Assembly (NCBI GenBank): GCA_029204225.1
Contig: CM055097.1
Coordinates: 69,616,572-69,680,571, forward strand
Length of the DNA stretch: 64,000 bases
Reading direction: 5' to 3'
Source of the DNA: Diphasiastrum complanatum
Lineage: Eukaryota; Streptophyta; Lycopodiopsida; Lycopodiales; Lycopodiaceae
Part shown: one piece after another, positions 17,559-50,509 of the stretch
Layout: the number at the start of each line of letters is the position of its first letter
Numbering within the stretch: the stretch's first letter is position 1
The notes under the pieces: model-generated
What the model saw: the letters and a program-made list of their open reading frames with translations, nothing else
Databases searched by the model: none
What the model was told of the DNA's origin: nothing
Program-made: the position numbers and the translations under genes

Positions 17559-18665
17559 TCATTTTTTTTCCTTTTTGGCTTTTTCATACCTTGAAATCCA
17601 CTTTTCCAATTGTCCACAATTATATAATATGAACGTGTCAATTTTCTCTTTTAATTGAGATGGAAGTCTCTTTTGCACACCATTTCCTTGTGGTACTTCA
17701 CCCTTAACACGTTCATCTTCTTCTTTACACCACATTTGTGGACTTGCAAGATGCAATTGTGAGATTATTTTGGTGATATAAAACAAAAATTCTTGTACAA
17801 GCCAACCTAAGTCTGCAATGCGGCTTGCCTTTTGTCTCACAAAGACCTTCAAAACTTTCATAAAGCGTGTGCACTAGAAGATGAACTTGTATGTCCAAAA
17901 AGGAAGTTAAAAATCTCTTTCCAACAAACATACCATTTCGATCATTGGATTCTCATGGAATCCAATTCATTATTTTTTATTTCTTTTGAGGAAATCCACC
18001 TGCAACAATATTGATATATCAATAGGTTGTTTAGCACATAAAAATACTGAAATATCACATATTTATACAAATGTTTAAAAAGATATACAAACTTAATCAT
18101 TGATGAGAAATTGTAAAGCGTATTTCGTACATCATCGTTAAATAGACCTCGAATAAAAAGTAAAAGTATGAATTGCAACATCTTATGCAAATAATGTGAT
18201 TTCAATCCACTTAATTTACCATCTTTGGTAAATGATTTGCATAAAGAATGGGCATAGCCTGTTGGAGTTCTCATTTGTTTCATGACATGTTTAACATGTG
18301 AGATTTGCTCTTTTATAAGAATCCATGGCAGAATCTCATCTCCACCTTCAGTGTATTGAATCCAATAGGGTCTTCAATATGTTTTCATGCGGGTGAGTCA
18401 CTTGGTACTCACGTCACATCATCCATAGATCAATTTTTGACATGCCAATCCATTAGTTGTGCCAAAGATTTACATCGAAATAAACATTGCAATTGTGGGA
18501 TAGTTGGAAAATGTCGTAACACATTTTGTGGCATTTTATCCCCTTGTACGTCATCTCAATAATGTGAAGTGTTACACATTGGACATTGAAGCTTTTCTGA
18601 ATGCTCACCTCTATATAAAACATGGTCTTCTTGACATGCATATATTGTGTCATAATCCATTCCAA
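17559..18665 (-). pseudogene. CACTA (En/Spm) TNP2-like transposase, C-terminal two thirds with deletion
   Basis: Minus-strand remnant of a TNP2-type transposase. From 18,665 downward it carries the Cys-containing N-terminal block (RGEHSEKLQCPMC near 18,600) and a block with DWHVKN and PSDSPA near 18,440. It then jumps, without the catalytic core, to the DUF4218 region: MRTPTGYAHSLCKSFTKDG and LSGLKSHYLHKMLQF near 18,200, then MKVLKVFVRQKASRIADLG near 17,840. Many stops and frameshifts are present. The right end at 18,665 is where copia A inserted. The missing N-terminal part of this frame is at 35,511-36,080, in opposite orientation. Confidence 0.85.
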
Positions 18666-18670
18666 GTACG
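18666..18670. repeat. Target-site duplication of copia A (3' side)
   Basis: GTACG, which reads CGTAC in the orientation of the element, directly abuts the LTR end at 18,671. Its partner CGTAC is at 36,076-36,080, next to the other LTR. Confidence 0.85.
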
Positions 18671-19320
18671 TGTGAAAGATTTCAGATCCTTAAGATCCAA
18701 TCTACTTGAATGATCTTTGGTTAGAAAGAGAAATACACTACCAATTTCACCAATGTAGAAAAATCAGCATCTACACACAATTTGAGATGCAAACACTAAT
18801 AGAACTTGATCAAACTTGAATGAAATGATTATGTACTGTCGTTGTCTGTACAAAACCAGCAAGCTACTGTACTTCACACGTGTGGATCCAAAAATAGCAA
18901 ATATAGATCATTCTACACATAGAATTGCGAGCAATCACCAAGATAGTGCACCAATGGATAGTAGAACCCAAGAGAACCATGTATAAGCATGAAATGAGAT
19001 AGAGAAGAGAGAAGATGACTCTCTCCACGAGTTACATCCTTTTATAACAGGTCCAAACCCTATTTGGCCACTTGGCTTTCCCACCAAAATGCTAACCCTA
19101 CCAATTTTGGGTCTAGATTCAATGTACCCAACTTATTCAAATTGAATCTACTCAAACTCGCATTCTATCTTTCCCACACTTTCAAAAAGTGTTTATTCAA
19201 ATGAAATTTAGACTAATGAACTTTGAAAAGTCAACCTCTAAGTCTAAAACAAGTTTTGGCCTCAATATGCCAAATATGGAAATATTGCAAAATGTGATAA
19301 AACTAGTTGAATCTTTCACA
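18671..19320 (-). repeat. Copia A 3' LTR (650 bp)
   Basis: On the minus strand it begins TGTGAAAGAT and ends ATCTTTCACA, a perfect 10-bp terminal inverted repeat. It is nearly identical to 36,081-36,730, which has exactly the same length. A purine-rich tract (GAAGAGGGAG on the minus strand) precedes its start, as expected of a 3' LTR. An internal TATAAAAGG sits near 19,043 (minus strand). Confidence 0.95.
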
Positions 19321-19876
19321 CTCCCTCTTCAACTAGTTTTAGCATAGACTTTGATAATACTCCAAGTGAAGTCCTATGCTTCATGAACAAGTCTTTTCTC
19401 AATGCTTTGGTGAAGATATCAGCTACACATTCCCTTGAAGACACATGTTGAAGCTCCACCTCCTTTGCAATGACTCGCTCCCTCACAAAATGATATTGTA
19501 TCTCAATATGCTTGCTCCTAGCATGAAAGATAGGATTGGATGCCATTCTTTGGGCTGATTGATTGTCACAAAAGATGATTGGGCTCTCTGAAAAATCCAG
19601 CAAGTGAAGATCCTTGATCATCCTCTTGATCCATACCATCTCCTTTGTGCAATGTGTAAGAGCTTTGTACTCGGCCTCACTAGATGACAATGAGATAGTG
19701 GCTTGTTTCTTTGACATCCATGATATAGCTCCATCACCTATGAAAATACAATAAGAACTAATGGATTTCCTATCCATTACATCTCCAGCATAGTCCAAAT
19801 CTGAAAATCCAAAAAGATTAGGTGACGATCCCTCATACAATATGCCAAAATCTCGAGTTCCAATGATGTACCTCAA
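19321..19876 (-). pseudogene. Copia A RNase H domain
   Basis: A 186-codon frame beginning MRYIIGTRDFGILYEG and ending just inside the LTR boundary. Ty1/copia RNase H signatures are intact: FSDLDYAGD, SSSEAEYKAL, CDNQSAQRM and ARSKHIEIQYHFVRE, giving the acidic catalytic residues and the late His. The frame is uninterrupted. It differs in frame from the preceding 301-codon ORF, so the polyprotein is broken there. Similar in sequence to the copia B RNase H at 45.4-45.8 kb. Confidence 0.92.
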
Positions 19877-19887
19877 AACTCACTTTC

Positions 19888-20793
19888 CTAGCTTCCAATG
19901 CTCCTAGCATAGTTTTTGCCAATAGAACTTTGATCCATCACAAGAATGATCTTCTTCCTAAGAATAGATCTCCTTTCAATGATCATGTAATGCTCAAAAT
20001 AGAAACAACCATAATTGATATAGAGAATAGTGTCCACTTGGGATGCTTCACTATTTCTTACATCAATTTTACATGTAAAAATGTGACTAGAACATGAAGA
20101 ATCAAATAGAATGTAAATAAAATGATTCCACCATGCTTCCAACTCTGAACTCTCTGGAAAAATACAGCAAACAAACAATAAATATGAGTGATCAACTTTT
20201 TCTTGCATGTCTCCTCCTCCTTTGTCCTTTGTTGCCTTGTATCCACCATGATACTCCATGAATGAGCCTCCATCTTCATCTTGCCACAAGAAACCATCAA
20301 ACCTTGGAAATCCATGAGTAGGTGAGCACATAAATGATGCAAATCCAGCACCACATGACTCCATAAACCAAGTAGTTTGCACTAGTCCATCTTCAAGATC
20401 TACTTGACACAAGAAAATGACCATGAATTCACCAAAAATTGACAATCTCCAAGTATTGGCACCAAGTAGCTCAACACTTGAGAACTTAGCCATGGATGAG
20501 TGACATAATGAACCTCCAATAGCTTCATTTCCATCAGCAAAATCAGCCAAGAATGATAGTACAAATCCAACATCAAAACAATGCTCACCAATGTAGCTAG
20601 TTTTACCATATCTTGACAATTTGCACACATCCACATGAAATTGCTCAAACATGAGATAGAACAAGTAAAGTAAACTTGAACAACACTTCCTTGCTGATCC
20701 TTTGACCTTACTTGAGTCTTCAATATGCTGCAAAAATAGATCCATAACACCTTTGCCAATTACCTCTCCTTTGATGCTCTTGACTAGCTCCAA
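19888..20793 (-). CDS. 301-codon ORF of unknown origin replacing reverse transcriptase in copia A
   Basis: Uninterrupted frame (MELVKSIKGEVIGKG to GKNYARSIGS) between the integrase and RNase H of copia A, exactly where reverse transcriptase should be. It has none of the RT motifs (no YVDD). Residues are rich in Phe, Cys, Ser, Gly and Trp, with short hydrophobic stretches (for example around LYLFYLMFEQF) but no clear membrane-segment series. Two other frames on the same strand are also fairly open (98 and 119 codons), so low stop density rather than coding selection may explain it. It could be a captured host fragment or the insert of a non-autonomous copia family. Function unknown. Confidence 0.4.
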   Translation of the reverse strand: MELVKSIKGEVIGKGVMDLFLQHIEDSSKVKGSARKCCSSLLYLFYLMFEQFHVDVCKLSRYGKTSYIGEHCFDVGFVLSFLADFADGNEAIGGSLCHSSMAKFSSVELLGANTWRLSIFGEFMVIFLCQVDLEDGLVQTTWFMESCGAGFASFMCSPTHGFPRFDGFLWQDEDGGSFMEYHGGYKATKDKGGGDMQEKVDHSYLLFVCCIFPESSELEAWWNHFIYILFDSSCSSHIFTCKIDVRNSEASQVDTILYINYGCFYFEHYMIIERRSILRKKIILVMDQSSIGKNYARSIGS

Positions 20794-20813
20794 ATTGCCA
20801 ACTTCCCTTTTGA

Positions 20814-21362
20814 CTAGTTGAAGCGCTTTGAGATCAACCTCCCATTGTCACCTCTCAAGCACTTGATCTTTGTGGAAAATTGGTTCTCCCTTGCATTCTT
20901 GAACTTGACAAAGACATCATACACTTCATCCTTGCTCTTTAGTAGATAGATCCAACAAAATCTACTAAAATCATCAATGAATGTTACATACATCTTAGCT
21001 CCACTATTGCTAATTGTAGTAAATCCATGAAAATCTGAATGTACAAGTTGAAAAGGCTTTGTAGATCTAGAAATAGATCTAGTATAAGGTAGTCTATGTG
21101 ACTTAGACAAAGCACAAGACTCACAAACATGCTTGTCATTACTTAAGGAACTTGGAAGACCAATCACAACCTTCTTCCTTGCCATTACCTCCAATGACTT
21201 GAAGTTGAGGTGTCCCATCCTTTTGTGCCAAACCTCTTGAATAGAAATTTGCTCCCTTGCAACACATCCAACTTGGTTAGCAATAACACAAGCATCAAGT
21301 TTGAACAACCTGAACTTGAAGTGATCCTTCAATCTGTAATCCTGGACACACAAATGAGTCAC
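20814..21362 (-). pseudogene. Copia A GAG-pre-integrase and integrase core (truncated)
   Basis: A 182-codon frame. It begins with the end of the pre-integrase region (LFKLDACVIANQVG), then the zinc-binding block HKRMGHLNFKSLEVM with CESCALSKSHRLPY. The integrase core follows with LVHSDFHGF and FIDDFSRFCWIYLL (two catalytic Asp). It breaks off after CLRGDN, before the catalytic Glu, where the unknown 301-codon ORF begins. The upstream gag-protease part of this element is at 37,332-38,552 on the opposite strand. Confidence 0.92.
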
Positions 21363-22509
21363 TTGTCGAAAGAAAGTGAAACCGATATTCCGTCATCTAC
21401 TACAATGTCCAACCAAGAGCAACCTTCACAGGGAATTGACAGTTTTTCTCCCCTTCTACAACCTCAAATCTATTTGTCTTTCCACATGCTGATAAGATTT
21501 CCAATGTGCCAATACACAATATTTCTCGGATTCGGAAATCCAAATAGAGATTCGGTTCTGAATCTCTTGTTCACAGAGGTTCTCAAGATATAGTACCTCA
21601 ATAATACCTGCATCTCAAACTATATTTTACAACATTTGCTATCACTGATGGTCGATACTAGCGTCACCCACCCTGCCTTGTTTTGACAAGGGCATGTCAG
21701 AGTAAGTCACATTACTCTACAAAACAACTGAAATATTGCAACTATCAAGGTACATTATCAATGTTGATGAATGCAAGTTTTGTTCGACAAGTTGGAAGAT
21801 GTTAGTCTCTCACTGTGATCCAAGAAATGTGAACATTGATGTTGATCCAACCTATGAAATCTAGCAACAGATTGAGAACAAATTCTCAACACAGAAAATC
21901 AATCTACCTTGAATTTGGATCTTGCTTCAGTCACAAAAAAGAAGCACATGCAAGCAAGAAGTCTATCTCTCCCACGTGTTTCAAAGTACTCATAAGCTCT
22001 CTAGGAACTTACTTTCAACTCAAACACAGTAATATGTGTGAAATGAAAAGTCTAAGACCTCATAACACTTACTTCTATTCAATTCTACTTGATTGACTGT
22101 GAAAAATGATAAAAATGGTGAAAAAGACAAATGTGTGCTCACTTTGGCATATCCCACGAGTTGAGTACCATCTCAAACTCTATGATTGTCTAAAACTCTT
22201 CTAAAAACAAATCAAATTGATTTACAAATTCAAGCAACACATTCTACTCTTCAATACCTATCCAACAAGCTATAGAACATCAAATTTGGATCATTCCTTG
22301 AGAAGTAGCACTCATTAATGAGGGCTGATTTCACACTGTGAGCTTTTTATCAGTACAGAGCTCCACTGGATCAGATCAGATCAAATCCACTTATGATCCA
22401 CAGATTGCTTGTTTCTCAGCAAGATTGAATCCCTCTCCCAAATCTGAGTTCCTACAAGCAAAAACACTAATGATCTGATGTACACACCCTCACCTCTTCA
22501 AAGCATGAA
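21363..22509 (-). other. Copia B 5' internal leader, no coding seen
   Basis: About 1.15 kb lying downstream (minus strand) of the copia B 5' LTR and primer site. Untranslated leader is expected for the first 600 bases. I find no gag in it. Its left end abuts copia A integrase sequence, so a junction between the two elements lies here, probably close to 21,363. Confidence 0.5.
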
Positions 22510-23251
22510 GCTCTGATACCATGTGAAGTTTTTAGCACGTGTGAACTTCACCACACACCCTACAGGATCTTACTAAGGTGTTGTGATTGCACAACATTGA
22601 TCAGAGAACAGTATACTTGAAAAATGTATGACAAGAGCACAATGGCATACATCAGATGAAAAAATCTAACTCCTCACTATGAGAAATGAATGTCAAAAAT
22701 AATTCTAAGTCTTTAGTATGGAAAAAACAACCTGCTCTCGGGTAGAGAGAGAAAATCAATGATGGAAAACTCGGGTAGAGAGAGAATGAGTCCAAAACAC
22801 CAAAATCTCGATATTCACAATATGGCAAAACATGCCAAGCTTTCCCTACATGAGAGAGACTCAAATTCCTATAGTGGAGTTGCATGGAAAGTCCACTTAA
22901 CTGAACTAATTCACCTACCAGAGATCCACATGTGTAACGGCATGCATGGATGTTGCATGTACTACATGTCAACTCATAAAACTGCCTAAATATGTGTAGA
23001 TCACAAAAACCACTTTGCATGTTGCATGCACTGATTGCATGTGACTTGCATGCATACAGTATGACATTGCATGCTATCTAAACTTCTGCATGTCATCAAA
23101 ATTGAATCTATCTAACTCAAATCCGAGTTATACTAGAAGGTTATGTGCTCAATTCACATACCTTTTATGTACAACATGAAATCTAGTGAAAATTACCATG
23201 GATATGGCCCCAAACTCGAGATAGGAAGATAATATTTTAATAATCTTCACA
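22510..23251 (-). repeat. Copia B 5' LTR (730 bp) with primer-binding site
   Basis: On the minus strand the LTR begins TGTGAAGATTATT at 23,251 and ends AAACTTCACA at 22,522. It is followed directly by TGGTATCAGAGC (22,510-22,521), the usual plant copia primer site complementary to initiator methionine tRNA. That makes it a 5' LTR. The other copy is 45,829-46,556 on the plus strand. Flanking CTACC at 23,252-23,256 (GGTAG in element orientation) matches GGTAG next to that other copy. Confidence 0.94.
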
Positions 23252-24230
23252 CTACCTCACACTTTGTGACATCAAGATGAATTATGTCTAATTTCAGAAG
23301 TGCAGATCCTTCAAGATTCATTATTCTTGGAGATGGATCCAAACATCAAGTGAACAATATTGGTTCACTCTGGCTCAACACGAATGGTAGAGACAGATGA
23401 CTCGAAGATGTTCTGTTCGTGCCTACACTGCCAAACACAAACATTGTGAAGATAGTGAGAGATGTCAGATTCGATGAGAGCATGACAATGGCCAATGATG
23501 ACCCTGTCAGCTATGAGGTTCTGGAAAGACAGTACTATAATCTGCCACCAGCGACAGAGGGAGCAAAAGACGAACACAAAAACGAAGATTTTTGAGTCGC
23601 TTCGCATTCAAGTGACGAATCAAAAGATGAAAGATTCGAGAGGGCACTTTCTGCTACAGTGCCTATAAACCAAGATGGTTCTGGACCTAGCAGAGCAGAC
23701 AAAGGCAAAGGCATTGTGGTTCTAGGAGTTTCTCCTAGAAGGTCGACAAGACAACGAAGAGCGCCAGCAAGATACATGTCAGGCATCTTAGCTTCCACAT
23801 TAGAAGAATTCTTGGATTTAGTGGCGAACCATAGACATTCAAGGAGGCAATTGAATGTCCAGAGAAGGACAAGTGGATCCAAGCCATGAAAGAGGAGATG
23901 GACTCCATGAGGAAGAACCAGGTATGGACGTTGCAGTCATTACCTGATAAGCGAAAGATTGTGAAATGCAAATGGGTCTACAAGCTCAAGTATGGACCAG
24001 ATGGGGATGTCTCAAAATACAAGGCAATATTGGTAGCAAAGGGATTTTCTCAGAGATATGGTATTGATTATTTTGAAACCTTCTCTCCTGTCATCAAACA
24101 TTTGTCCCTAAGTTTGTTATTTGCATATGCAGCTGCTTATGACCTCAGGATCCACATTGTGGACAAGAAGACAACCTTCTTGCATGGTGAGTTAGACGAG
24201 GAGGTCTACATGGATCAACCTCCAGGTTAT
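23252..24230 (+). pseudogene. Copia C protease tail, linker and start of reverse transcriptase
   Basis: Begins in mid-protease: SHFVTSR, then RFIILGDGSKHQVNNIGS. It continues through a linker with SPRRSTRQRRAPARYM (23,730) to reverse transcriptase: DKWIQAMKEEMDSM (about 23,870), KCKWVYKLKYGPDGDVSKY, KAILVAKGFSQRYGIDYFETF, and EVYMDQPPGY (24,220). Frameshifts and stops are present. RT is cut at PPGY, where LTR-derived sequence follows. The upstream half of the same protease is at 46,557-46,700 on the minus strand, and the reading continues exactly across the copia B insertion site. Confidence 0.9.
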
Positions 24231-24534
24231 TGCTTGATTGATCTTGTTGCAAATTATTTCGCTTCGTTTCGTTTCATATAGTTTCGTGATCTGTCTTTCA
24301 GCATGAATCAATGTTAGTGCAAGTTTCGCTTTGCTTCGTTTTGTTTCGTTTTCTTCTAAAATTCATCTCATTTCGTTTGGTTGCATTATAGCGCCTGATT
24401 GATCCAACTCGAACAAAAATAATTTGAGTGTCGCTAAAAGTTTCACGAATCATTCGTGATTTAATTCTGTCAGTTTGTCACCAGAGTTGTTTTGGCTAGA
24501 ATTTTGCATTTTCTGAGTGCATTTCTTGTCATTA
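24231..24534 (+). repeat. Copia C 3' LTR fragment
   Basis: The sequence with many TTTCG/CTTCG motifs matches the reverse complement of about 47,735-48,040 and ends ATTTCTTGTCATTA, against ATTTCTTGTCATCA in the other copy. It follows truncated RT directly, so the rest of pol has been deleted between RT and the middle of the LTR. Confidence 0.8.
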
Positions 24535-24539
24535 CTTTC

Positions 24540-24995
24540 AAGCCTACATTATCAATCTGCACTGGACCACCTGCGGTGATGCTATCCAAGTGAGCTTGCA
24601 ATAAATCTCGCTCATACTCAATAACATCCTTACAGATCTGCAAAGTACTTGCCTCTCTTTGATATTTTGTGATTCTCTCAAAGTATTGAGCATTTTTACC
24701 CCATAATACTTTGTTATCATCTTCTATCTTCCTTGAGTGTGTCGATACATGTGTCCTTCTCCTTCATTTGTAGCTGGTACTGATGTAACTTGGGTATTTC
24801 TTCTTCAGTATGGCGTAGCCTCGTGGTTTGCTCCTCATGTAATGTCTACCAATACAAGACCTCCTTTTCTAAGTGAAAATAGTTCCGCAAAAATTCTATG
24901 GCAGGCCGGAATGCCGGTGAAAATTCAGATGTCATGCATAGAAATCCCCTAAGCTGGTCCTCATCTTGATATGACTTCCATACAGATGCTAGCCC
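24540..24995 (-). pseudogene. Coiled-coil ORF fragment, probably from a retrotransposon
   Basis: Minus-strand frames with few stops: DQLRGFLCMTSEFSPAF, then RLRHTEEEIPKLHQYQLQMK, KDTCIDTLKEDR and QYFERITKYQREAST. The Glu/Lys/Gln heptad pattern resembles the coiled-coil part of the gypsy 3' ORF at 4.4-4.9 kb. Two frame changes are needed. Assignment to that family is an inference. Confidence 0.4.
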
Positions 24996-25016
24996 GTTCG
25001 TCTATAGTGTATCAAC

Positions 25017-26790
25017 TTGGATATGCAGGATGGTGTCAAAAGACTAAGACCAGACTCTTCTGCAACTATTACAAGAGAACCAATCACGACATCAAGGACT
25101 GTTGAGCTCTCAAGCACAATGAAGCAAAGAAGAAGATGTAGTAGGATGGTGAATCTGATTTTGCCAGAACCTCCACAAAGAATCAACACTGCTAATGATA
25201 CAAGATGAACCCATTAGAGAAGCTATGGATTGGTATCTCGATTCTAGTGCTTCTCAGCACATGAATGCATGTAAGTTCCTATTCGAAGACCTCACACCAG
25301 TAGATTCGAAGTATGTCTACTTCAGTGACTCAAGTGCACTAGGAAAAGGATCTATACACCTTTATCTTCCAAATGGTAAATTGACCTTGCTTCAGGATAT
25401 ACTTTATGTACCCAAACTGACCAAAAATTTATTGTCAGTCAACAAGCTCACTATAGAGCCTTGTTCAATTCGAAGCTATATACCATTTTGGATAAGAACT
25501 ATAAAGAAGCTCTCTCTACAAACAAAGAAGGTAATTTTTACATTTTGAGGCATGAGTATGCACTTACTACTGATGTGAGCACTTCAAATGCCCAATTATA
25601 GCATCAAAGATTAGGACACTTAAACATGAGATCAATCTTGTATATGCATCATAATAGTATGGTCAAGGATCTAAATATTAATGTTGCCTCCACTGACATT
25701 CGACATGTCTGTGAGGTGTGCCTACTGGACAAATAGCCTATATCAAGATTCCCAAAGGGACAGGCCACTAGAGCTAATTCCATTTTAGGATTGATACAAA
25801 GTGATCTGTGTGGCCCTATGAGTGTTCCATCACTGGGTTCAACACTATATTTGATACTTTTATCGATGAGTATTCAAGATTTACCAGCATTATGTTCATT
25901 AAGAACAAGTCTAAGGCATTCAACTATTTCAAAGAATTCAAACAGTTTGCTGAGACACAGACTGGTCAAAGACTCGAGACCCTATGTAAAGACAGTGGTG
26001 GAGAGTTCATGTCACATGAAATGTCTGACTATTTATCATCATGTAGCATTCATCATCAATTCACCACCTGCTACACACTACAACAAAATGGAGTAACCGA
26101 GAGGAAGAACCGAACATTACTTAATGCAATACGATCAATGATGTCAAATGCTCAGCTCACCAAGAATTTTTGGGCTGAAGCTATTTCAATAGCTTGCTAT
26201 TTGTAGAACTATTCAAGCACCAAGGCGGTCAACTCAAAGACTCCCTTCGAAGCTTTCTATGGCTACAAACCGAGTCTAAGACACCTTCAAGTGTTTGATT
26301 GTCTTTGTTATGTGCAGATTCTCTCTAATCTGAGAAAGAAGCTTCACCTTGTCAACTACAGGAGTATCTTCATTGGATACTCGACATCACACAAAGCCTA
26401 TCAGATCGATGATGTTGAGTCAAGTTGTATCTCAGTCAGTCGAGATGTAGTCTTCTTCGAAGACAGGTTTTATGACTTCAAGAAGAAGCAATAAACGCAG
26501 GAGTTCGTTCCAATGACTCCCATCACCATCGACAGGCCTCAACCTGCGACTGTTTTGACAAACATTGAAGATACCCACATCGCACATCAAGGAGAATCAT
26601 CATCTCAGCAACTGACTTTTGTTCGAAGATCTGCTTGACATCGACAAGAGCCTGATCGCTATACCCCTCAGGCATTCATCAATAATGATGGACCTGCCTC
26701 AGTAGCAAAAGCATTGTCGAGTTCAAATGTAGACAATTGGCGTTCTGCCATGCATGCTGAGTACAATTCATTGATGAAGAACAATCAGAG
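25017..26790 (+). pseudogene. Copia D gag zinc knuckle, protease, integrase and linker (disrupted)
   Basis: Starts in a zinc-knuckle-like stretch (FCNYYKRTNHDIKDC). The protease is WYLDSSASQHMNACKF, where the usual DSGA is DSSA. Pre-integrase follows (QHQRLGHLNMRSILYM), then integrase: LIQSDLCGPMSV, a frame change, FIDEYSRFTSIMFIKN, LQQNGVTERKNRTLLNAIRS with its Glu, and TPFEAFYGYKPSLRHLQVF. The linker continues to AMHAEYNSLMKNNQ, the first residues of RT. Several stops and one frameshift occur. At about 26,790 the coding sequence switches abruptly into LTR sequence. Confidence 0.88.
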
Positions 26791-27294
26791 ATCTTAGAGA
26801 GAGTGAAAGTTATTCAAGAAGTAGATATAGTTATTCAATCTATAGCTAGATAAGTAAGATCACAACACATAGTGCGCTATTACTGTGAACCATTCTTGGG
26901 CACATGATCGTGATCTGATTGTTGTATTCACAACAGCTTAATTCAAATTTTCTATTTTCTTATGTGTGTTGCACTATGAATGCTTTTTGATATTCCTCTT
27001 TCATACACTAATACTCGCTCCACGACTCACTCAGGAGACCTAAATTCGAAGGAAGCATGGCTGTCTTAGACGCCTAACTGTGTTTTGCTCCCTTCATGGT
27101 TGTCTTTGACACCTACAAGATATCCTTCCTGTCGATCTAAGTTAAAGTCTGAAGCTATAGTTTGGTAGAGATCTTGTTATAATTTGCATGTTGAGTTCTC
27201 TCTATTTATTCCGCATACTAGAAACCCAACAAGCTGGTATCAGAGTTATTCAAACCCAACTCATTGGCATTATCAGACCAATAGGAACCCAACA
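26790..27294 (+). repeat. Copia D LTR fragment (3')
   Basis: Matches 45,160-45,440 (same strand) and the reverse complement of 48,843-49,055. It ends GGAACCCAACA at 27,294. No primer site follows, so it serves as a 3' LTR. The left part of the LTR is missing because of the junction with RT. Confidence 0.8.
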
Positions 27295-27486
27295 AGGCCT
27301 CTCTTTTACATTCAACTCAAGTAGAGACTCCGACCTTACTTTCCAAGTTGAACATTCAGTTGAGTTGAGCTATCATTACTTTCGAACATGATGCCACTTG
27401 TAGTAGCCAGCATGTATGATGATTACTTCTTCTCTTTGTCTATTCTAATGCACTAAGCACTCACACTGCTCTCAACAAATGATATT

Positions 27487-28100
27487 GCTCTGATACCATG
27501 TCATAAATTTAAGATCTAAAATGATTCTAAATGTAAATCTAGGCACAATAGAATATGCACAAAAACAAATGTCAAATTTGTAGCCAATTCTACGTGCATA
27601 GAATTTCTAGTTTGATCAAGTAACTCTACTAAAGCAAGATAGAATCAAAAGCTATTCAACATATGGAAAGACCTAATCCAATTCTCTGTTAGTAGGCCAT
27701 AAAATAGAAACAAATCATTTATTGCCACTCTCCAATAGAGATAGATCAAGCTTACAACAAGTATTCTAGTAAAGGATTAGAATTTTAGAGAAAATATTCC
27801 TCAGATTTGGGTTTTTCATTGCTAGAAACATCTCCTCTCTTGTATTCAATCATTGTGGCTCAAGGGTGAAGTTGATGGAGGATTAATTTTTAATCTTTCT
27901 TTGGTTGTGGGTGATTTGGCTCCACAACTCTACTTTTGGTATTCGTAGCTGGATCTTAAGGATCTACACAAGATGATCTGCACACAAACAACCCTAGAAA
28001 GCATTGGACCAGCATATGCATGCATACTTGTGGAAAGTCTAACTCAATGCTTGAACTGAAAAAATAGTAATTAATAAGGACCAAACTTTGAAAGCACCAA
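27487..28100 (-). repeat. Partial LTR of another copia family with primer-binding site
   Basis: GCTCTGATACCA at 27,487-27,498 is the reverse complement of the copia primer site and is preceded on the minus strand by an LTR end ...TTTATGACA. The LTR therefore extends right from 27,499. Its outer edge is not visible; about 28,100 is a guess. No internal coding sequence of this element follows to the left. Confidence 0.55.
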
Positions 28101-29989
28101 TTGTTTACTAAAGTGAACTTTCATGTCTATAAACACTCCCTTTAAGGTTGAATTTTTACAATATTCTTGTATCTCAAATTAAGCAAGGTGTCTTATTGAA
28201 GTAGTAAGTTTCATATAATGATTCTAGTTTGTATCTTTCTAGATTTTTCAACTTAAAAGAACTGCTTGAACAATTTGAATATTTAGATAAAAAATTTCTT
28301 TTTCTATTCAATTTAAGATAAAAGAAAACATGCTTTATGTATCAAAGGAAAAACAAAGTTGTGGAATCTATGTTTTGCTCGATGGGATAGAAAAGTGTGT
28401 TGCTGAAAGGTTTTAGGAGGATTGTGATTAAATGTCTATATGATTGGTTTGTAATTGTTGGAAGGTACAATGGTGACACCTTTTAAAGTGAGATGGGACC
28501 AAATTTAGAATTACAATACTAGCTTAGAAGTACATAACAATGTCTCTTCAAGTTCAATGTATAGAGAGGAGAACTTAGGGATATGGAGTAAGAAGTGGTT
28601 TTTGGAGAGAATCATTTATTGTGTCTTCTGATTGAGCTGTTATGGTAGTATTGTAGGATTCTTGCACAAAGAACAAGTTTATCTATTTGAATTCTTTTGA
28701 GATATTCATGTAATTAGAAAAAAAATGTTAGTGTTGTAGAATATTGAGAGAGTATGTTTTGTATACTCTAGGTGTATTATCTTAAAATTACTTACTTGGC
28801 GATTCGCTACACTTGTGTCTTGTCCTAAGGACAAAGGCGTCTCGTTTTGTTTGTACATCAGTTTTCAAAGAGGAAGTGGAAAGGTTATTTTTATGTTTGA
28901 AGGATAAATGGATATACAACTCAAGGAATCCAAAAAATAGCTAAAAAATGGTTGCACTGACTCAAAGACTAGAGATGATAATGTTTTTGTCAACTTTGTG
29001 TAAGATACATTTGTCCATGTAAATACATGTGTATAAGATTTTGATTGCATGCCATACTTGCTTAGGCAATTGCACATAAAGTAAAATGCCATGTTGCCAT
29101 TTTGGATTTAGAATGACAAGGTTGTTTTGTATATTAGATTCCGTATTTATAAGGAAAAGAGCGATGCGAAGTAAATATAAAAAACACCGAGCATGAAGAT
29201 GATTCTGAATTTTGTGAAGACCAACAATATGATATTGATGTTGGATGTTCTAAACATGTAGGGCAAAGAAAGAGGTGTGCTTTATATCACTAAATTGGAC
29301 TAGATGTGAATTTGAAACAAGAAATTTGGCAACTTTTGGGGAAACACAGTCGACTCCATGGAGCATATGATGCCAATGGAATTAATTCTTCACATGAATG
29401 TAGTCCCAACTTTGTCAAGCCTACTTAGCAAAGAACCTTTTGAAAGCACATGATATTTGTTATGTTGGATGCTCTTCATATGTAAAAGTCCATGTCCCTA
29501 TATCTGAAGTTATAGATTGTGTGTTGTAGTTTTAAGTTCTAGTCACTATGTGAATCAAAAATTTCTTCCTTCTCAAGAAAAATTGGAGTTATTTTTTGTA
29601 GTTGTGTAAAGATGGTAGTCGTACTTCAGTATGGTGATGACAATGTTGCATCGTACTTCAGTATGGTGATGACAATGTTGCTCTAACTATGTGCCATTGT
29701 TCGTAGCATAGCACAAGATATTCAAAACAAAATTTATATACTCAAACTATGTTTGATACTTTGCATTTCCAAGGCAAGCCCAAACTTCGGCACGTTCTTT
29801 TAAATTTGACTTGTTCACAAAACTAGTGACCCTACTACTCCAACACAATCTTGAGTTGGAAAAGGCAAGTCCAAAGCAATCCTCCTGAGTCATGATGAAG
29901 GAGTGCATCTAAATTCTTCTCTATATCCTAAGATTTACAATGATAACTTTACCAAGGGAAAGAAATTAGTTAAATAGAATGATCCAAGA
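28101..29989. other. Gene-poor stretch with a 32-bp duplication
   Basis: No gene recognised. A perfect 32-bp direct repeat occupies 29,619-29,650 and 29,651-29,680 or so (TCGTACTTCAGTATGGTGAT and onward). A plus-strand frame at 29,185-29,430 with one stop reads acidic and protein-like (SEHEDDSEFCEDQQYDIDVG) but has no recognised relatives. Confidence 0.4.
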
Positions 29990-30404
29990 ATTGACGGACC
30001 AAGGAAGGGGGGGCTGGGGAGGGGGGGCACGCGAAAAGCTCCCATTGTCTTTTTTACATTTCGTCAAAATTGGGGCCCTTAAGCCTAGGGTCCTTCTTGG
30101 CATGGGGCATCAGCACGCGCGTCCAAGGGTGGGGGTCCGACCCCCAGGCGATGGCCCGTCGGTAGGACCTACCACTGGTCGGCGACGGCCTGGCGGCAGG
30201 AGAATATACAATCATCGCGTCCTTTCTGGAATCTGAACTCTTGGGTCCAATCCGGCCGACCTGTCTGCCGGCCCGGCCGCCGACGGTCAGCGTCGTGAAC
30301 CTTTCTTTTTCCGGCCCGGGAGTTTTACACGGTATGGGTGACGCATGGCAGTGGCGTTGGATGATGCAAGTCCCAAGAGGAAGCCAAGGTTCCTTTCAAA
30401 GACA
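29990..30404. other. GC-rich island in AT-rich DNA
   Basis: About 400 bases with many CpG and GGCC motifs, sharply different from both sides. It contains small dyads (GGGGGTCCGACCCCC, GGTAGGACCTACC). Two overlapping short ORFs have no domain character. It could be a CpG-island promoter, a captured fragment or foreign DNA; the sequence alone does not decide. Confidence 0.5.
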
Positions 30405-30412
30405 CCCCCCCC

Positions 30413-30454
<42 letters not shown>
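30405..30454. repeat. Poly-C run followed by (CT)n
   Basis: About 19 C residues, then about 31 bases of CT repeat, directly at the right edge of the GC-rich island. Confidence 0.95.
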
Positions 30455-30457
<3 letters not shown>

Positions 30458-32194
30458 CTTTCAAAACAAAAACAAAAACAACCATTTTAAAATTTCAATG
30501 ACGGCCAGTTTATGGAGCTTGCTCTAAAAAGCTTTAAAGTTGATTTTAAAAACTTCATCTAAAGGTCATCATCATTTTTCAAAATAAAGGTTTGCAAGAT
30601 GCTTGTGAGATCTCCTTACTTTTCAAATTTTCAATTGAGTATCAAAAGGTGGGATATAGCATATTAAGTTGTATTTAAGACAAAATGGCACGCTTCACTT
30701 GGTAAAAGAATGCTATTGCTAATTGCAAACTTGTTGAGAATTCAAACTCAAAAATGTTCATCCTAATTCTAAGCTTGATGAGGATTCAAACTCTCTTCTT
30801 TCTATTCATGTTTATCATGCCACCTACACATTTCACACTTGGACTACATAATAGGAATTATGGTTTAGAGCACAAACGCCATAAGTTCCTTCTGACAAGC
30901 ACAAACGAGGATTTTAGCGTGCCACATGTGACACTTTTATCCAACTGAGTGACAGTGCGGGGACTACATAGAAGCTCATATTTTGGATTAGTCAAAAAAA
31001 AGTTGAGTGAAACAAGCTATCATCCAAGATTTAAGGCGATCCAAGCACCCACTAAAAATGAGTAATTACAAGTTTAATATATGTTATGGCTTTAGAACGC
31101 ACTAGCCCTTCAAGCCTAGCAACATAGATAGAACAAAAGATGTGCATCCTTAATCATTACCACTTTTTTCTCTCTCCCTTAACGATAAATGTCCACAACA
31201 TGCATTACTCTACTACTTATGGAATAAACTTCCATGTTAGCATGCTCATTTTAGATTTAACTAAAAAACTTCAAGTTAAAGTACGCCATGCAAAACAAAA
31301 TCAAGTGTTTCTTCTTATGTATCAGACTCTCTCTTGAGCTTCACTTTATAAATTCCATACAGAGTGTAGTTTTAAAAAACTCGGACTTATCTTTGCTTAG
31401 GGATTTGAAAAACATACTAGTTAGTTGTATCTCAGTGCTACAAGGAGTCGCATCCACATCTTTTGAATAATTTTTCATGTATGAAATGATGCTATTTTAT
31501 TTCATTATGTTTCGTTCTAGCGTGAAAGACTAGATTTTAGCTAGTTGTATGGCACCTTGACTATCCTTGAAAATTGCATATTTTTTCTGATGCCAATCTC
31601 ACTCTCAAGTAATTGTCGTTGTCATACAACTTCCTAAGTTGTTGAACTCAATGCCTTATAATTAGGTTATGTGGTCGAAAGAGATATGATGTCTTGTTTT
31701 TTGCTAGGCCAGGAGAAATAACCATCGGCAATCTCAAAGCTTTAACATTTAATTTTGATATTATCTACCCAATCAATGTCAACACATCTCTGCAGTTTTG
31801 GCAAGTCATCATGTCTTGTGTAAACTAGATCATGACTAGATGCTCCTTTTATACACCTCAAAATTTGTTTGGATGCTTCTCAATGATCTATCATTGGCAT
31901 TGCCATGAATATTCTAGTCAAACTTACAATATAGCAAATATTTAGTTGTGTGGTGGTAACATAAATGAAGTTTGGTCTTCACATCATATCCAACAAAAAT
32001 ACATCTAATGGATTTTGATTGTAACTTATATCTCTCCACCTTTGAATTTTCAAATGCTATAATTGGACACCCCATCTAGCTTACTGGCTTCTCCAAGCAC
32101 AGTTCTCCTAATCTTGCAATCCTATCAAAAAACTACTCCTATAATGGCTTAATGAGCCCAAAAGGAAAGCTTATAGAGTAATAAAAAACTTCAA
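30455..32194. other. No gene recognised
   Basis: AT-rich with short ORFs only; no transposon domain visible on either strand. A block near 31,700-32,100 (minus strand) has the flavour of decayed copia pol, but I could not confirm motifs. Confidence 0.4.
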
Positions 32195-32222
32195 GGTTTA
32201 GGGTTTAGGGTTAGGGTTTAGG
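32195..32222. repeat. Interstitial plant telomere-type repeat
   Basis: About four TTTAGGG units, one of them short (TTAGGG). Too short to be a telomere; typical of interstitial traces. Confidence 0.85.
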
Positions 32223-34443
32223 CCCTCACGTTGCTTAAATTGGCCTATCTCACCAAAATCAGTGCAATTTTATCGAATTGCTCCAATGTGGGATCACCAA
32301 CTACCTTGACCCTTGAATGGTATGGTTTGCCCTCTAATGCACTTTCTCTCCACGATTCGATGATCACTCTGTCCAAAAGAAGTTGCACTTGCACTGTACA
32401 ATCCATTTTTGCCCTTAATTTGGAGGATTTTTGCTTTTGGACAGTTGCAAATGGAGTAATAGGCCAAAATTTATGGGCCTTTATAGAATATACATTGTCT
32501 TTTCACTTTGAAGAAAGGCACCTTTCAAGTGAATCTAAACTTTACGATACCTTTCCTTTTGAGATTTTTTTATGAAATTGAAGGGCCCTTTGATATTTGG
32601 GCCCCTTCAAATGAAGTGTGTTGATTGACTTTGAAGATCCAATGATTGAAAATAATCCAATGGCCCATGTTGAAACAATCAACCACTGATTTGGTTCAAG
32701 CTTTGGTTCAAGCTTAATCTTGCAGTTTTGGGTAGAAGTGGATGTTGATCTACTTTCTTTCACCCGATACAGCCCTAAAAGCACTACTCCATCTCTTTGG
32801 ATGAGTGCACATGACTAGCCACAACCCCTCCCTCTATCTTTGTCTCTTCTCCAAGCCGCAATAGGGTCAGCGGAATCCAACATTTATGGACGACATCGCA
32901 ATTTGACAGTCTATGATTACCGACGTGCCGGAGACCAACCCCAGAAATGTCACGTCGGGATCGATGTGGACGTCGGATTCCGACATCTGACATGGATGTC
33001 GGAATTCGATGTCCCACGTGGACATCAGAATGCGACGTCCAATCGTGGACGTGGCGGATCCGACGTGGATGTCAGAATCTAATGTTCCAAGAAGACGCAA
33101 GAATCCGATGTCTGTTAACAAAAATAAAATAGAACATGCATCAAAATGGTCGAACAAGGGTCCGAAGATCTCGTCGACGTCCATCCGACGTGTAAATGGA
33201 CGTTGAATTCCGATGTCCTAACAGTACGTTGAAATGCGAGGAACGTCAGAATGCGATGTATGTTAAGATAACATCCTAAACAATGGTCCGACAGGCGATG
33301 GGTGTTCGACAAATATCTGACGTATGCCCGACGGGCTTTTGTGTCAGAATCTGACGTCTCTGATTAGGTAAAAAAAATAAAAAATGCATAAAAAACAGCA
33401 TGCACATTTTTATCGATGCATTCTTGGAGTGGTGTTCTTAAAGAAGTGTTAGCCTTGGATTGCTTTTGAGACAATATTTTTGGATGCATTCGACATTTGG
33501 ATCAAGTAACAAGCATGAGGTACTTTATATACTTACATTACTTAATTCACATTATGAATTGCAATGTCTTATTGTATTACTTTTTGAAAATCCGACATTG
33601 CACAAAGTTTTGCAATTCCTAGCTAGTGAAGACATTGCACATCTTAGAATACAACATTGCTCATATTTTGGAATCCGACATACAAAACCAATAACGATAT
33701 TGTGACCAATTGCAATAATATATATAATAAAAGTGTCAATCAATGTATCACAAAATTGTTGCTTTCATAGTCTCTCTAACTTACGATAGATGAACTAAAA
33801 TTTATATTAAAAACCTAATCTACTTGTCATCATCTTGACATCCACTCCGCATGGAAACAAGCAAACAAGACACAATAGTATTTAATGTCTGATCATACTA
33901 ATGGTAAAGAGTGAACATGTACACGTTTTACAACAATAATATACGAAGAATACAAAATTTAAATCTTTCAAAGAAACTTACACGTGGAGGATTACCCTTG
34001 CTCTTCAGTTTATCAACTAATATCTCGTATGTTCCCTAAAGGCAAAGTTGTACTCTTCCTTGGTTGGTAGACATCCATAGCCCGCCAACTATCTATTCAA
34101 TTTAAGTTGGAATTGGTTTAGGGCTGGGTTGGAGCAGCTAGTCATTATCCATGTTAAGTAAGAAAATCATATGACATCAAAGACAAACTATAAGAGTAGT
34201 TTAGATTCATGTACCATGCTTGCTTGCAAGCCCATCTTTTCGCTCAAGCCCAACTTAAGGTTGCCTATTTCATGCATCCTAGCAGCTGCAACATCTCTTT
34301 GAATCTTGTATTTATCTGGTGTTCTTTCATCATTTTTTACAGTGTTCCAATTTTCCCTTGAACACCAGTGGGGTTTCGATAACCCATCCCTATAATGTCA
34401 TCATGTTGTATCTCGACGATGTCTTATTCACAAGCCCATATGC

Positions 34444-34845
34444 TTATGAATTTCCTTTGAGTCGAATTTCTCGTCTTGCTCGCAGCATGTGCTCCATCGT
34501 CTGATTGGTCTTGGTACCAACAACCTGTCGTTTAAGATCGTTAGATTGTTCAAACCATTTCATAAACAATCTATCGCCAAAATGGCATTGGCACAAATAA
34601 TATAATCGGTCCATAACCACCCTCCCTTTACGGTTGGCGATTATATTCCCTTGAGGATCTGTGTCATAATAGAAATTCGTGGATGACTCTTCAGTAGGGG
34701 TGGGAGCCGCGGCCACTTGGGAGGTACCACCCTTGTCTTGGCTAAGCATCAAACTTTACAATTGTGCTTTTTGCTTGAGATTTAGTGATGTATAAAAATT
34801 TGAAACATAATCTCCTGAGCTCTCACCACTGTCGGGCCCCGACAT
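34444..34845 (-). pseudogene. CACTA-borne small ORF of unknown function
   Basis: A minus-strand frame from ATG 34,845 (MSGPDSGESSGDYVSNFY) with one stop, then 102 codons from MMLSQDKGGTSQ to REIRLKGNS. The same start occurs in CACTA element 2 at 51,310 on the plus strand (MSGFGSGEISRSYVSNLY). It is divergent from the TNP2 gene of the same element. C-terminal residues (MDRLYYLCQCHFGDRLFMKW) are reminiscent of plant transposon-associated proteins; I cannot name it. Confidence 0.55.
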
Positions 34846-35510
34846 GATTACTACATTCATAAGCATACAATACATTACAATAAACCCTAATCAAGTAGAA
34901 AAAAAAAATTAACTACAAAATTTTAATGCATAATAGAGTTAGACTTTCATACTAGTGATAACAAAATAAAAAGATAGATGTGTGTTTATAACCTGCAACA
35001 AGATGCAAAAGAATCGTATAAGAATCCAAGTATCAGAATCAATACATGAGAATCATACAATAATATGCACATAAGAATCATGGTATCTAAATATCAAAAG
35101 ATAAAATTAATGTATTTTTTAATTTAACTAGGCGTATGTTATTTGTGTTTTGTACTTGTGCATATATGTAGTTTATCACAAGGAGATGAATTACATTCAA
35201 ATCAGTCTAGCGATGAAGACACTACTCAAGTCAACAGGGTACATAATAAACATCCATGTTTTCTTGTTCATAAAGACTTTGTTACTATAAGTTAAACATG
35301 ACCTCAAATATTGTGCTAAAGTGACATGTACTTGATTTTTGTTTCTCACAAAAAAACTATTTTCAAAATAAAATATGGTGCACATGCGTCAAGTATGATG
35401 GGCAAAAGATGCGTGAAAGACGCATTATATGATTTTGTTTTATTATAATCTTCGTCGATCTATATACGCCATTTATTGTATTTGTTTAATGTGTGTAGCC
35501 AATAAATCGA

Positions 35511-36080
35511 ATGCCATTCCACAAAGTTGATCCATCTGTGTTTAATTACAATCAACGTCAAGTTTTGATGGACATGAGAAAACAAAGAACGGAACAAATT
35601 CAAAAGAGTAATCAACTTGATTTTGATGATGATGATAATGAAGTGCAAGACGATGAAGCAATGCACAATAGTTTGAATCTTAGTTTGAAACAAACGAGAA
35701 TGATACTATGCATGCATCTTCTAGTGAAAATGGAGATCACGAACAATTTGAGATGGATGAAGATGAGATTCTATTGCGCAAGGAGGCAGACACTTCTTTG
35801 TATCCAGGAGCACCCATTTCGAAACTAGCTACGTCAATTCTTATCCTAAACCTTCAAGCAACATACAAATGGAGTGACTGTAGTGTCACATCATTATTCG
35901 GGTACTTAATGCATAGCACAACTTTTGTACTAGTATAGTGCATTTACATTAAATTGATTTTTTTTTCTTTTCTAACAACTCACATTGCTATTTTTCTTTT
36001 CATGTTATTGCATAAAATACTTCCGAAAGAAAACGTGATACCTAAAACATGAAAAGAAGCACGAAAGATGATGAACGTAC
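35511..36080 (+). pseudogene. CACTA TNP2-like transposase, N-terminal exons
   Basis: First block MPFHKVDPSVFNYNQ, then an acidic stretch (LDFDDDDNEVQDDEAMHNS). After a frame change come EADTSLYPGAPISKLATSI and NLQATYKWSDCSVTSLFGYL, typical of the TNP2 N-terminus. An AT-rich gap of about 90 bases (probable intron) leads to KILPKENVIPKT ending at 36,080. At that point copia A interrupts the frame. The continuation is at 18,665 on the opposite strand. The uninterrupted equivalent is at 50,755-50,937 (minus). Confidence 0.82.
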
Positions 36081-36742
36081 TGTGAAAGATTCAACTAGTT
36101 TCATCACATTTTGCAATATTTTCATATTTGGCATATTGAGGCCAAAACTTGTTTTAGACTTAGAGGTTGACTTTTCAAAGTTCATTAGTCTAAATTTCAT
36201 TTGAATAAACACTTTTTGAAAGTGTGGGAAAGATAGAATGCGAGTTTGAGTAGATTCAATTTGAATAAGTTGGGTACATTGAATCTAGACCCAAAATTGG
36301 TAAGGTTAGCATTTTGGTGGGAAAGCCAAGTGGCCAAATAGGGTTTGGACCTGTTATAAAAGGATGTAACTCGTGGAGAGAGTCATCTTCTCTCTTCTCT
36401 ATCTCATTTCATGCTTATACATGGTTCTCTTGGGTTCTACTATCCATTGGTGCACTATCTTGGTGATTGCTTGCAACTCTATGTGTAGAATGATCTATAT
36501 TTGCTATTTTTTGATCCACACGTGTGAAATACAGTAGCTTGCTGGTTTTGTACGGAAAGCAACAGTACATAATCATTTCATTCAAGTTTGATCAAGTTCT
36601 ATTAGTGTTTGCATCTCAAATTGTGTGTAGATGCTGATTTTTCTACATCGGTGAAATTGGTAGTGTATTTTTCTTTCTAACCAAAGATCATTCAAGTAGA
36701 TTGGACCTTAAGGATCTGAAATCTTTCACATGGTATCAGAGC
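36076..36742 (+). repeat. Copia A 5' LTR (650 bp) with target duplication and primer site
   Basis: CGTAC (36,076-36,080), then LTR 36,081-36,730 (TGTGAAAGAT to ATCTTTCACA), then TGGTATCAGAGC at 36,731-36,742. That order defines a 5' LTR. Nearly identical to 18,671-19,320, with differences limited to scattered single bases (for example around 36,553), so the insertion is young. TATAAAAGG occurs near 36,355. Confidence 0.96.
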
Positions 36743-37331
36743 TTGTGTTTCAGGTTATGAAGGAGGAAATCAGATTTATCAATGATTTGGTGAAGATATC
36801 AAGTCTAGAGCATGCTAGAGAGGATTCTACACCAAAATCGGATTTTTTGCTTTTGTAGATTGGATCTTTTGTAGATCAAAACAGTAAATAGGTCAATATA
36901 CTTGTTCAATTCTGTTTTTTTGAATTCACATGCTGGATTTGGCCGATTTTTGGATCATTGGTTCAGCCTAAGTGGTGGCTTATAGATTGCATATCAAATC
37001 TTCAGCATTTGCATGTAGATTTGGAATAGTCAATTTTTTGTGATTTTGTCAAAACCCTAATTTTGATTGGATCTCTAGATAGTGAGGTTGCTGGACTTCA
37101 TTTGAGTGTGTTTCAATCTTAGGAAGTGGCAAAAGTCATTAGATTGAGGATAGATCATAGGTTGATCAAGATTCCATGATTCTCTGTGTTGATTTGCTTG
37201 GATAAGTGCTAGAAGAGAATTTGTGAGATAGTTTCAAATCTTGGTGATTTCTTTTGAAAGCATTTGTTGTTGTTCAAAGGAGTGCTTTGTGCATTGAAAC
37301 AGGTTGAAAGAGAAGATCAGGTCATTGCTAC

Positions 37332-40578: not shown

Positions 40579-40584
40579 TTATTC

Positions 40585-40640
40585 AAACAAATTACAAATT
40601 TAACTTTCTAACAATGTAATTCATCATATACTATGTATTC

Positions 40641-40692
<52 letters not shown>

Positions 40693-40901
40693 GTCTCTCT
40701 CTCTCTCTCTCTAACAAATTACAAAGCTAACATTCAATTATCAGCATACACTATCTATTCATCTAGTACCTTAAACCCTAAATCAAAATGCAAAACACCT
40801 CTCTCTCTCTCTCTCAAATTTTTCATTCTATTTTATTCTTGTTCAAACAAATTATAAAGTTAACTTTCTAACAATGTAATTCATCATACACTATGTATTA
40901 G

Positions 40902-40997
<96 letters not shown>

Positions 40998-41044
40998 CCT
41001 CCCTCCCTCCCTCCCTCCCTCCCTCCCTCCCTCCCTCCCTCCCT

Positions 41045-41112
<68 letters not shown>

Positions 41113-41130
41113 TCTAACGTTCAATTATCA
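40585..41130. repeat. Complex CT-microsatellite block with duplicated flanks
   Basis: CT runs at about 40,644-40,712, 40,800-40,815 and 40,905-41,106, the last containing about 15 CCCT units (40,991-41,052). Each run is preceded by related sequence (AACTTTCTAACAATGTAATT; CATCATACACTATGTATT) or followed by related sequence (CTATCTATTCATCTAGTACC). The same flank occurs beside the GA run at 50.5 kb in inverse orientation, so the microsatellite travels with a defined repeat. Confidence 0.92.
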
Positions 41131-44480: not shown

Positions 44481-44489
44481 TTGACCGAC

Positions 44490-50500: not shown

Positions 50501-50509
50501 GTATGCTTT

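What the first reader, a model, noticed from the sequence alone, without database searches (positions are those of the whole stretch)
18666..36742. Two ends of one copia A insertion lie 17 kb apart and inverted, with matching target duplications
Seen: the LTRs at 18,671-19,320 (-) and 36,081-36,730 (+) are both 650 bp and nearly identical. One is a 3' LTR (after RNase H) and the other a 5' LTR (before a primer site). Flanks are GTACG and CGTAC, the same duplication read on opposite strands. Beyond them are two halves of a single TNP2 transposase frame, and an uninterrupted homologous site is present at 50,864-50,870. Inference: one insertion has been broken by inversion, or the assembly is wrong here.
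Basis: partly seen in the sequence, partly recalled or inferred. Interest (0 to 1): 0.88.

Follow-up and report, generated by a model that had tools for sequence, protein, structure and literature searches.

The report
Nested retrotransposons scrambled by three inversions
In what looks like a clubmoss genome, one jumping gene was cut in two and its halves flipped apart, and the same stretch shows two more flips that scrambled a nest of jumping genes, leaving a readable record of local chromosome breakage.

Summary
Copia A is a single insertion. Its LTRs differ at 14 of 650 bases, its target duplications match, and its joined flanks align without a gap, 160/185, to an uninterrupted copy at 50,764-50,948. 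Its two halves abut within one residue on an in-window relative, copia B.

The inversion model passes an independent test at its other end. Beside the left break lie the 5' LTR and primer site of a second element, assigned to copia B, whose 3' LTR is at 45,829-46,556. Both LTRs carry GGTAG, and their joined flanks restore a protease motif (ILDSGAT|SHF) of the host element D.

Two more flips follow: repeat R3 is split at 45,437/49,071, and copia B's SH3 domain is split at (CT)n tracts near 40.6 and 50.5 kb. Undoing three inversions, the minimum for this order, puts 25 of 25 listed features in consistent nesting: A in its host, B in D in F in G.

No N occurs, but no reads or second assembly were available, so misassembly is unlikely, not excluded. 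Mechanism: ordinary break-and-rejoin inversions. Novelty is low; the case is unusually legible.

The parts
18504..18670 (-). Left flank of copia A: part of a transposase-like frame, ending in target duplication GTACG (18,666-18,670)
   Evidence: 18,504-18,666 is 87% to 50,703-50,865; frame VLGMDYDTIYACQEDHVLYRGEHSE read; family name TNP2 recalled, not confirmed
18671..19320 (-). 3' LTR of copia A, 650 bp
   Evidence: 14 mismatches to 36,081-36,730
19319..21311 (-). 3' half of copia A: pre-integrase and partial integrase (21,311-20,841), then about 960 bp without a family match, then an RNase-H-like block (19,879-19,319)
   Evidence: Pfam gag_pre-integrs 9.1e-15 and rve 8.3e-06, the latter below its cut-off; no Pfam hit for the other two frames; B residues 67-223 match 21,311-20,841
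21311..21374 (.). Left break of inversion 1 (copia A / copia B leader), not placed to the base
   Evidence: A homology starts at 21,311 on the B ruler and at or below 21,308 on the 8 spanning outside proteins; 4 of 112 protein alignments reach further, the longest to about 21,374
22510..23256 (-). 5' LTR assigned to copia B (22,522-23,251), primer site (22,510-22,521), target duplication GGTAG (23,252-23,256)
   Evidence: 94.5% to 45,829-46,556; GGTAG on both
23257..24531 (+). 3' side of element D: protease continuation (SHFVTSR...), RT fragment (23,835-24,229), R2 terminal repeat (24,229-24,531)
   Evidence: joined frame; RVT_2 2.6e-31; R2 alignment
25159..27296 (+). Element F 3' side: Pol_BBD, integrase, SH3-like, intact R3 terminal repeat (26,784-27,296)
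   Evidence: Pfam Pol_BBD 2.5e-19 and SH3 1.2e-21, rve 6.6e-06 below cut-off; R3 alignment
27309..27498 (-). Element G: primer site and gag N-terminal part
   Evidence: 27,309-27,462 is 71.5% to 37,434-37,280; primer motif at 27,487
33003..36080 (+). Right flank of copia A, ending in target duplication CGTAC (36,076-36,080)
   Evidence: 83% (35,766-36,076), 83% (34,729-34,891), 72% (33,341-34,197) and 81% over 42 columns (33,003-33,043) to the inverted homologue 50,869-52,612, with two long unmatched stretches
36081..36742 (+). 5' LTR of copia A and primer site TGGTATCAGAGC (36,731-36,742)
37308..38541 (+). 5' half of copia A: gag, zinc knuckle, Pol_BBD up to the break
   Evidence: Retrotran_gag_2 1.7e-23, zf-CCHC 7.4e-05, Pol_BBD 6.8e-13; B residues 8-65 match 38,368-38,541
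38541..38553 (.). Right break of inversion 1 (copia A / copia B gag)
   Evidence: A homology ends at 38,541 and at or before it on the 8 spanning proteins; B gag-like frame starts directly after it (read by eye)
38542..40568 (+). Copia B: gag, Pol_BBD, integrase, first part of SH3-like domain
   Evidence: Pfam; F SH3 ruler residue 58 ends at 40,567
40569..41157 (.). (CT)n-bearing repeat at one break of inversion 2
44062..44489 (-). Element G: remaining gag
   Evidence: 44,062-44,483 is 72% to 37,911-37,482; Retrotran_gag_2 2.2e-09
45157..45437 (+). Element F: first part of the split R3 repeat; break of inversion 3 at 45,437/45,438
   Evidence: 88.7% to 26,784-27,065
45438..46561 (+). Copia B: remaining RNase-H-like block (45,438-45,811), 3' LTR (45,829-46,556), target duplication GGTAG (46,557-46,561)
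   Evidence: A RH residues 59-180 match 45,437-45,802; no Pfam hit for 45,422-45,811; LTR and duplication
46557..48036 (-). Element D 5' side: R2 terminal repeat and primer site (48,036-47,722), gag (47,697-47,176), protease start ending ILDSGAT
   Evidence: gag Pfam 1.5e-06; joined frame; R2 alignment
48828..49071 (-). Element F: second part of the split R3 repeat (49,071-48,841) and primer site (48,839-48,828); break of inversion 3 at 49,071/49,072
   Evidence: 91.4% to 27,064-27,296
49072..50512 (-). Copia B: SH3 remainder, RT, start of the RNase-H-like block
   Evidence: SH3 remainder 50,515-50,450 found by the second SH3 ruler, E 6.9e-06, not by the F ruler at E up to 10; RVT_2 2.5e-17 and 1.2e-27; A RH residues 1-48 match 49,208-49,065
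50513..50703 (.). (CT)n tract and related repeat at the other break of inversion 2
50703..52612 (.). Uninterrupted homologue of the copia A insertion site
   Evidence: gapless 160/185 across the site

Best explanation
Copia A inserted once into a transposase-like frame. Nearby, four other copia elements had nested in each other: B in D, D in F, F in G. Three local inversions then rearranged the block: about 21,312-38,541 (17.2 kb, cutting A and B), about 40.6-50.5 kb (9.9 kb, between (CT)n-bearing repeats, cutting B) and 45,438-49,071 (3.6 kb, cutting F's terminal repeat and B). Inversions 1 and 3 look like double-strand breaks rejoined by end joining. Inversion 2 could be recombination between inverted (CT)n repeats. 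Shown: adjacencies, LTR pairs and target duplications of A and B. Inferred: the repair routes, the timing, that the gag-integrase block belongs to the B LTR pair, and that the assembly is right.
For: A flanks and duplications. A halves abut on the B ruler, residues 65/67; 8 of 112 outside proteins match both halves in order. The two LTRs assigned to B are 94.5% alike, share GGTAG, and their joined flanks give ...NTQEVILDSGAT|SHFVTSR... in one frame. R3 is contiguous at 27,064/27,065 but split at 45,437 and 49,071, with the two parts of an RNase-H-like frame on the other sides of the same breaks. One SH3 ruler (62,547-62,741) matches both the end of B at 40,457-40,621 and 50,515-50,450 on the other strand. 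Given the inferred order, reversal distance is 3 with a single set of inversions in 6 orders. 25 of 25 listed features fall into consistent orientation and nesting, though the list includes those that led to the model. 0 N in 64,000 bases. Between break surroundings (150 bases each side) of inversions 1 and 3 only matches of 9 to 19 bases were found.
Against: No read or second genome was seen: the genome search did not complete in 9 of 9 calls. The copia B gag N-terminus predicted beside 21,312 on the minus strand was not found: it was lost at the break, or the B leader holds something else. 4 of 112 protein alignments run past 21,311, up to about 21,374, so the A break there is not sharp. The 8 spanning proteins leave 14 to 74 residues unmatched at the A break. 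Inversion 2 cannot be placed inside the (CT)n tracts, and the F SH3 ruler did not find the remainder at 50,512. About ten residues of the RNase-H-like ruler are missing at inversion 3. No clear target duplications for R2 and R3.
Confidence: 0.77

Rival explanations
1. Assembly error: the chromosome still has the nested order and the assembler or chimeric reads flipped segments.
For: No reads seen; the block is full of repeat families, (CT)n tracts lie at two of the six joins, and the 650-bp inverted A LTRs are 98% alike.
Against: Three flips are needed. At inversions 1 and 3 the break surroundings share only 9-19-base matches, and the repeat finder listed 0 inverted pairs of 40 bases or more (seed 14) in 21,200-41,000. 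No N. A flip at the A LTRs themselves would not give the ancestral order (reasoning from the order).
Confidence: 0.14
2. LTR recombination: copia A in its host became a solo LTR, the excised circle with one LTR inserted into copia B, and recombination between the two inverted LTRs then flipped 19,321-36,080.
For: Gives the same present order; the LTRs are inverted, 650 bp, 97.85% alike. A one-LTR circle opened at Pol_BBD would lie between B's leader and gag.
Against: Needs three events where one inversion suffices. I ran no test that tells the two apart.
Confidence: 0.06
3. Two independent copia A insertions, each truncated.
For: Two separate LTRs in opposite orientation.
Against: Matching duplications, a gapless joined site, complementary halves and the parallel copia B evidence.
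Confidence: 0.01

Closest known systems
Nested LTR-retrotransposon clusters (recalled; tools such as TEnest and REANNOTATE)
   Same: Elements inserted in one another, with LTR pairs, primer sites and target duplications that order the events.
   Different: Here three inversions break the nesting. REANNOTATE says it normally makes a separate model for any segment that violates colinearity (PMC2672092, passages).
Small chromosomal inversions with breaks in transposable elements
   Same: Both ends rejoined, most sequence kept, breaks inside elements.
   Different: For inversions 1 and 3 the break surroundings share no long repeat, unlike ectopic recombination (Galileo, PMC2775673), and the breaks are not at transposon ends as in alternative transposition (PMC8225341); both papers seen only as listing and abstract start.
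Local shattering and rejoining (chromoanagenesis; recalled)
   Same: Several inversions clustered in about 30 kb, each with one break in copia B.
   Different: Three ordinary inversions explain it equally well; no evidence of simultaneity.

Membership tests
Ty1/copia LTR retrotransposon (element A) | Two near-identical LTRs with TG...CA ends | tested here: met
   14 of 650 differ
Ty1/copia LTR retrotransposon (element A) | Short target duplication of equal sequence at both ends | tested here: met
   GTACG/CGTAC, after allowing for the inversion
Ty1/copia LTR retrotransposon (element A) | Primer site next to the 5' LTR | tested here: met
   TGGTATCAGAGC at 36,731; its match to initiator tRNA-Met is recalled
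Ty1/copia LTR retrotransposon (element A) | gag, protease, integrase, RT, RNase H in this order | tested here: inconclusive
   copia-type gag, BBD, pre-integrase and partial rve found; no RT seen in A; the RNase-H-like block has no Pfam hit. A looks non-autonomous
Ty1/copia LTR retrotransposon (element B) | LTR pair, primer site, target duplication, integrase before RT | tested here: met
   holds only if the inversions are undone and the blocks belong together
Simple inversion (inversion 1) | Both new joins resolve into old neighbours when the segment is flipped back | tested here: inconclusive
   A join resolves; the B ends pair with matching duplications and host motif, but the exact B leader/gag join is not shown
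CACTA / TNP2 transposase (host of A) | Transposase_21 domain | tested here: inconclusive
   No match above a cut-off for short broken fragments; name recalled from motifs, not filed as a member
Recombination between inverted repeats | Breaks lie in homologous inverted repeats | tested here: not met
   Not met for inversions 1 and 3. Inversion 2 has (CT)n repeats in inverted orientation at both breaks, so it stays possible there

The most novel reading that the evidence does not exclude
All six breaks arose in one local shatter-and-rejoin event after the recent copia A insertion: each of the three flips has one end in copia B, as if that element was a break hot spot, making this a kilobase-scale chromoanagenesis in a clubmoss-like plant.
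Probability: 0.15. Interest if true: 0.6.

Novelty: new member of a known kind. Interest (0 to 1): 0.4.

Why it matters
Nested LTR elements carry paired ends and duplications, so they work as built-in markers of later inversions, datable by LTR divergence, without any second genome. Annotation that requires colinearity would list such pieces as separate fragments. A genome-wide count of LTR pairs with matching duplications in opposite orientation would measure small-inversion rates in a little-studied plant lineage and also flag assembly errors.

Tried and rejected
Tried without result: search of the window's own genome (genome search, not answered in 9 of 9 calls). Rfam at gathering threshold and ARAGORN gave 0 matches. 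No family match above a cut-off for the host frame of A and no protein relative. No clear target duplications for elements D and F. I looked for the copia B gag N-terminus beside 21,312 and did not find it.

Papers: five searches on inversions in or around retrotransposons and two on clubmoss genomes. Lists were capped (15 of 17, 20 of 22). No listed title or abstract start describes LTR halves parted by an inversion and identified by their duplications; the papers' bodies were not read for this. I saw passages of PMC2773423, PMC2672092, PMC7156093 and PMC4387472 only. This does not show that no such paper exists.

Rejected: two independent insertions; alternative transposition at transposon ends (breaks lie inside copia bodies or a terminal repeat).
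Full report
What was checked. The two LTRs are at the stated places, 650 bp each, with 14 mismatches and no gap; flanks are GTACG and CGTAC. In the window's self-comparison (E up to 1e-10, 100 bases or more) each terminal repeat used here (A LTR, R1, R2, R3) appears in two copies, one of R3 in two pieces. Two random 5-mers of the window match in reverse complement 307 of 200,000 times.

One insertion. The left flank of the left LTR and the reverse complement of the right LTR's flank, joined with one copy of the duplication, align to 50,764-50,948 with 160 of 185 identities and no gap. In the homologue one frame runs through (ENLIPKTRKQAQNMMNMLGMDYDTIHACQ...), and the two flanks carry its two parts. 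I recall this as TNP2-like transposase; no library confirmed it and a protein search found no relative.

Complementary halves. The right block holds copia-type gag, zinc knuckle and Pol_BBD; the left block holds gag_pre-integrase and partial rve. Copia B, directly right of A, serves as a ruler: its residues 8-65 match 38,368-38,541 (+) and residues 67-223 match 21,311-20,841 (-). Of 112 proteins found by search, 8 match both halves in the right order; they leave 14 to 74 residues between the halves, and their matches end at or before 38,541 and start at or below 21,308. Against a sharp edge: of 112 alignments of the left frame to these proteins, 4 begin before the residue at 21,311 (P0011, P0027, P0035, P0079), the longest reaching about 21,374. 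I therefore give the left break as 21,311-21,374.

The other end of the inversion. If 21,312-38,541 was flipped, DNA right of 21,312 once lay left of copia B's gag. On the minus strand there lies a primer site (22,510-22,521) directly after an LTR (22,522-23,251). Its partner LTR is at 45,829-46,556 (+), after an RNase-H-like block; identity 94.5%, 38 mismatches, one gap, and both LTRs border GGTAG. The DNA beyond the two copies of GGTAG, joined, reads KNCSTTYICIDVCAASTPNTQEVILDSGATSHFVTSR*IMSNF... in one frame, a retropepsin-type DSGA motif (recalled) cut by the insertion. This pairing does not use copia A at all. That the gag-integrase block at 38,542-40,568 belongs to this LTR pair is inferred from position, orientation and its missing 5' end. 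The gag N-terminus itself was not found beside 21,312.

Two further inversions. Repeat R3 is intact at 26,784-27,296, but its other copy is split: 45,157-45,437 (+) and 49,071-48,841 (-), with no bases missing at the split in the alignments. On the far sides of the same two breaks lie two parts of an RNase-H-like frame (A RH residues 1-48 at 49,208-49,065, residues 59-180 at 45,437-45,802), with about ten ruler residues missing. So 45,438-49,071 was flipped. Copia B's SH3 domain ends at 40,567 on the F ruler. That ruler did not find a continuation at E up to 10, but a second SH3 ruler from 62,547-62,741 matches both 40,457-40,621 (+), whose last residues lie beyond the domain break, and 50,515-50,450 (-), residues 41-62, E 6.9e-06. 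Both places border (CT)n tracts and a shared repeat, so this is the third flip, with unresolved break points.

Order. I wrote down the ancestral order that these adjacencies imply. From it the shortest path to the present order is three inversions, with a single set and six orders in time, so order gives no timing. Mapping 25 features by coordinate gives copia A whole in its host and G(F(D(B))) with 25 of 25 directions consistent. I chose the list, and it includes the features that led to the model, so it is a check of consistency rather than an independent test.

Timing. LTR divergence gives K = 0.0219 for A and 0.0541 for B. With clock rates recalled from flowering plants (1.3e-8 and 7e-9) A is 0.84 to 1.56 million years old; no rate for this lineage is known to me. 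Inversion 1 is younger than A; inversions 2 and 3 are younger than B.

Mechanism. Within 150 bases each side, the two breaks of inversion 1 share matches of 9 and 19 bases and those of inversion 3 of 9 to 12 bases, at E 0.037 to 0.45, so no long repeat links them; end joining fits (inferred). Inversion 2 could be recombination between (CT)n repeats (inferred). The inverted A LTRs were not the break points, though they could now flip 19,321-36,080 by recombination.

Source. A histone-H3-like ORF at 16,606-17,025 has its best relative in Diphasiastrum complanatum (85% identity over 75% of the query), which suggests a clubmoss. This rests on one protein; named relatives of the integrase piece were other organisms, such as Solanum and Adiantum.

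Verdict. The finding is right and larger than stated. It is an ordinary class of event in an unusually legible form.

Noticed in passing
16606-17025 (-): 140-aa ORF with a histone fold (Pfam Histone 8.8e-27), best solved relatives H3.1/H3.2, best protein relative Diphasiastrum complanatum 85%; residues before about 41 are outside the best-matching stretches to the listed solved H3 chains. A possible H3 variant or retrocopy.
   Followed up: partly
19891-20847 (-): 319-aa open frame inside copia A where the rest of integrase and RT would be expected; no Pfam match. Copia A may be a non-autonomous form with a replaced interior.
   Followed up: no
61802-62741: Copia gag and integrase fragments on the minus strand next to integrase/SH3 fragments on the plus strand; possibly another rearranged element.
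   Followed up: no
5958-6471 and 63477-63992: Two 90% identical direct copies of about 515 bp at opposite ends of the window.
   Followed up: no
15890-16445: Cluster of diverged repeats, direct and inverted, beside the histone-like ORF.
   Followed up: no
40569-41157: Two 94% copies of a 144-bp unit ending in (CT)n, with (CCCT)n beside them.
   Followed up: partly
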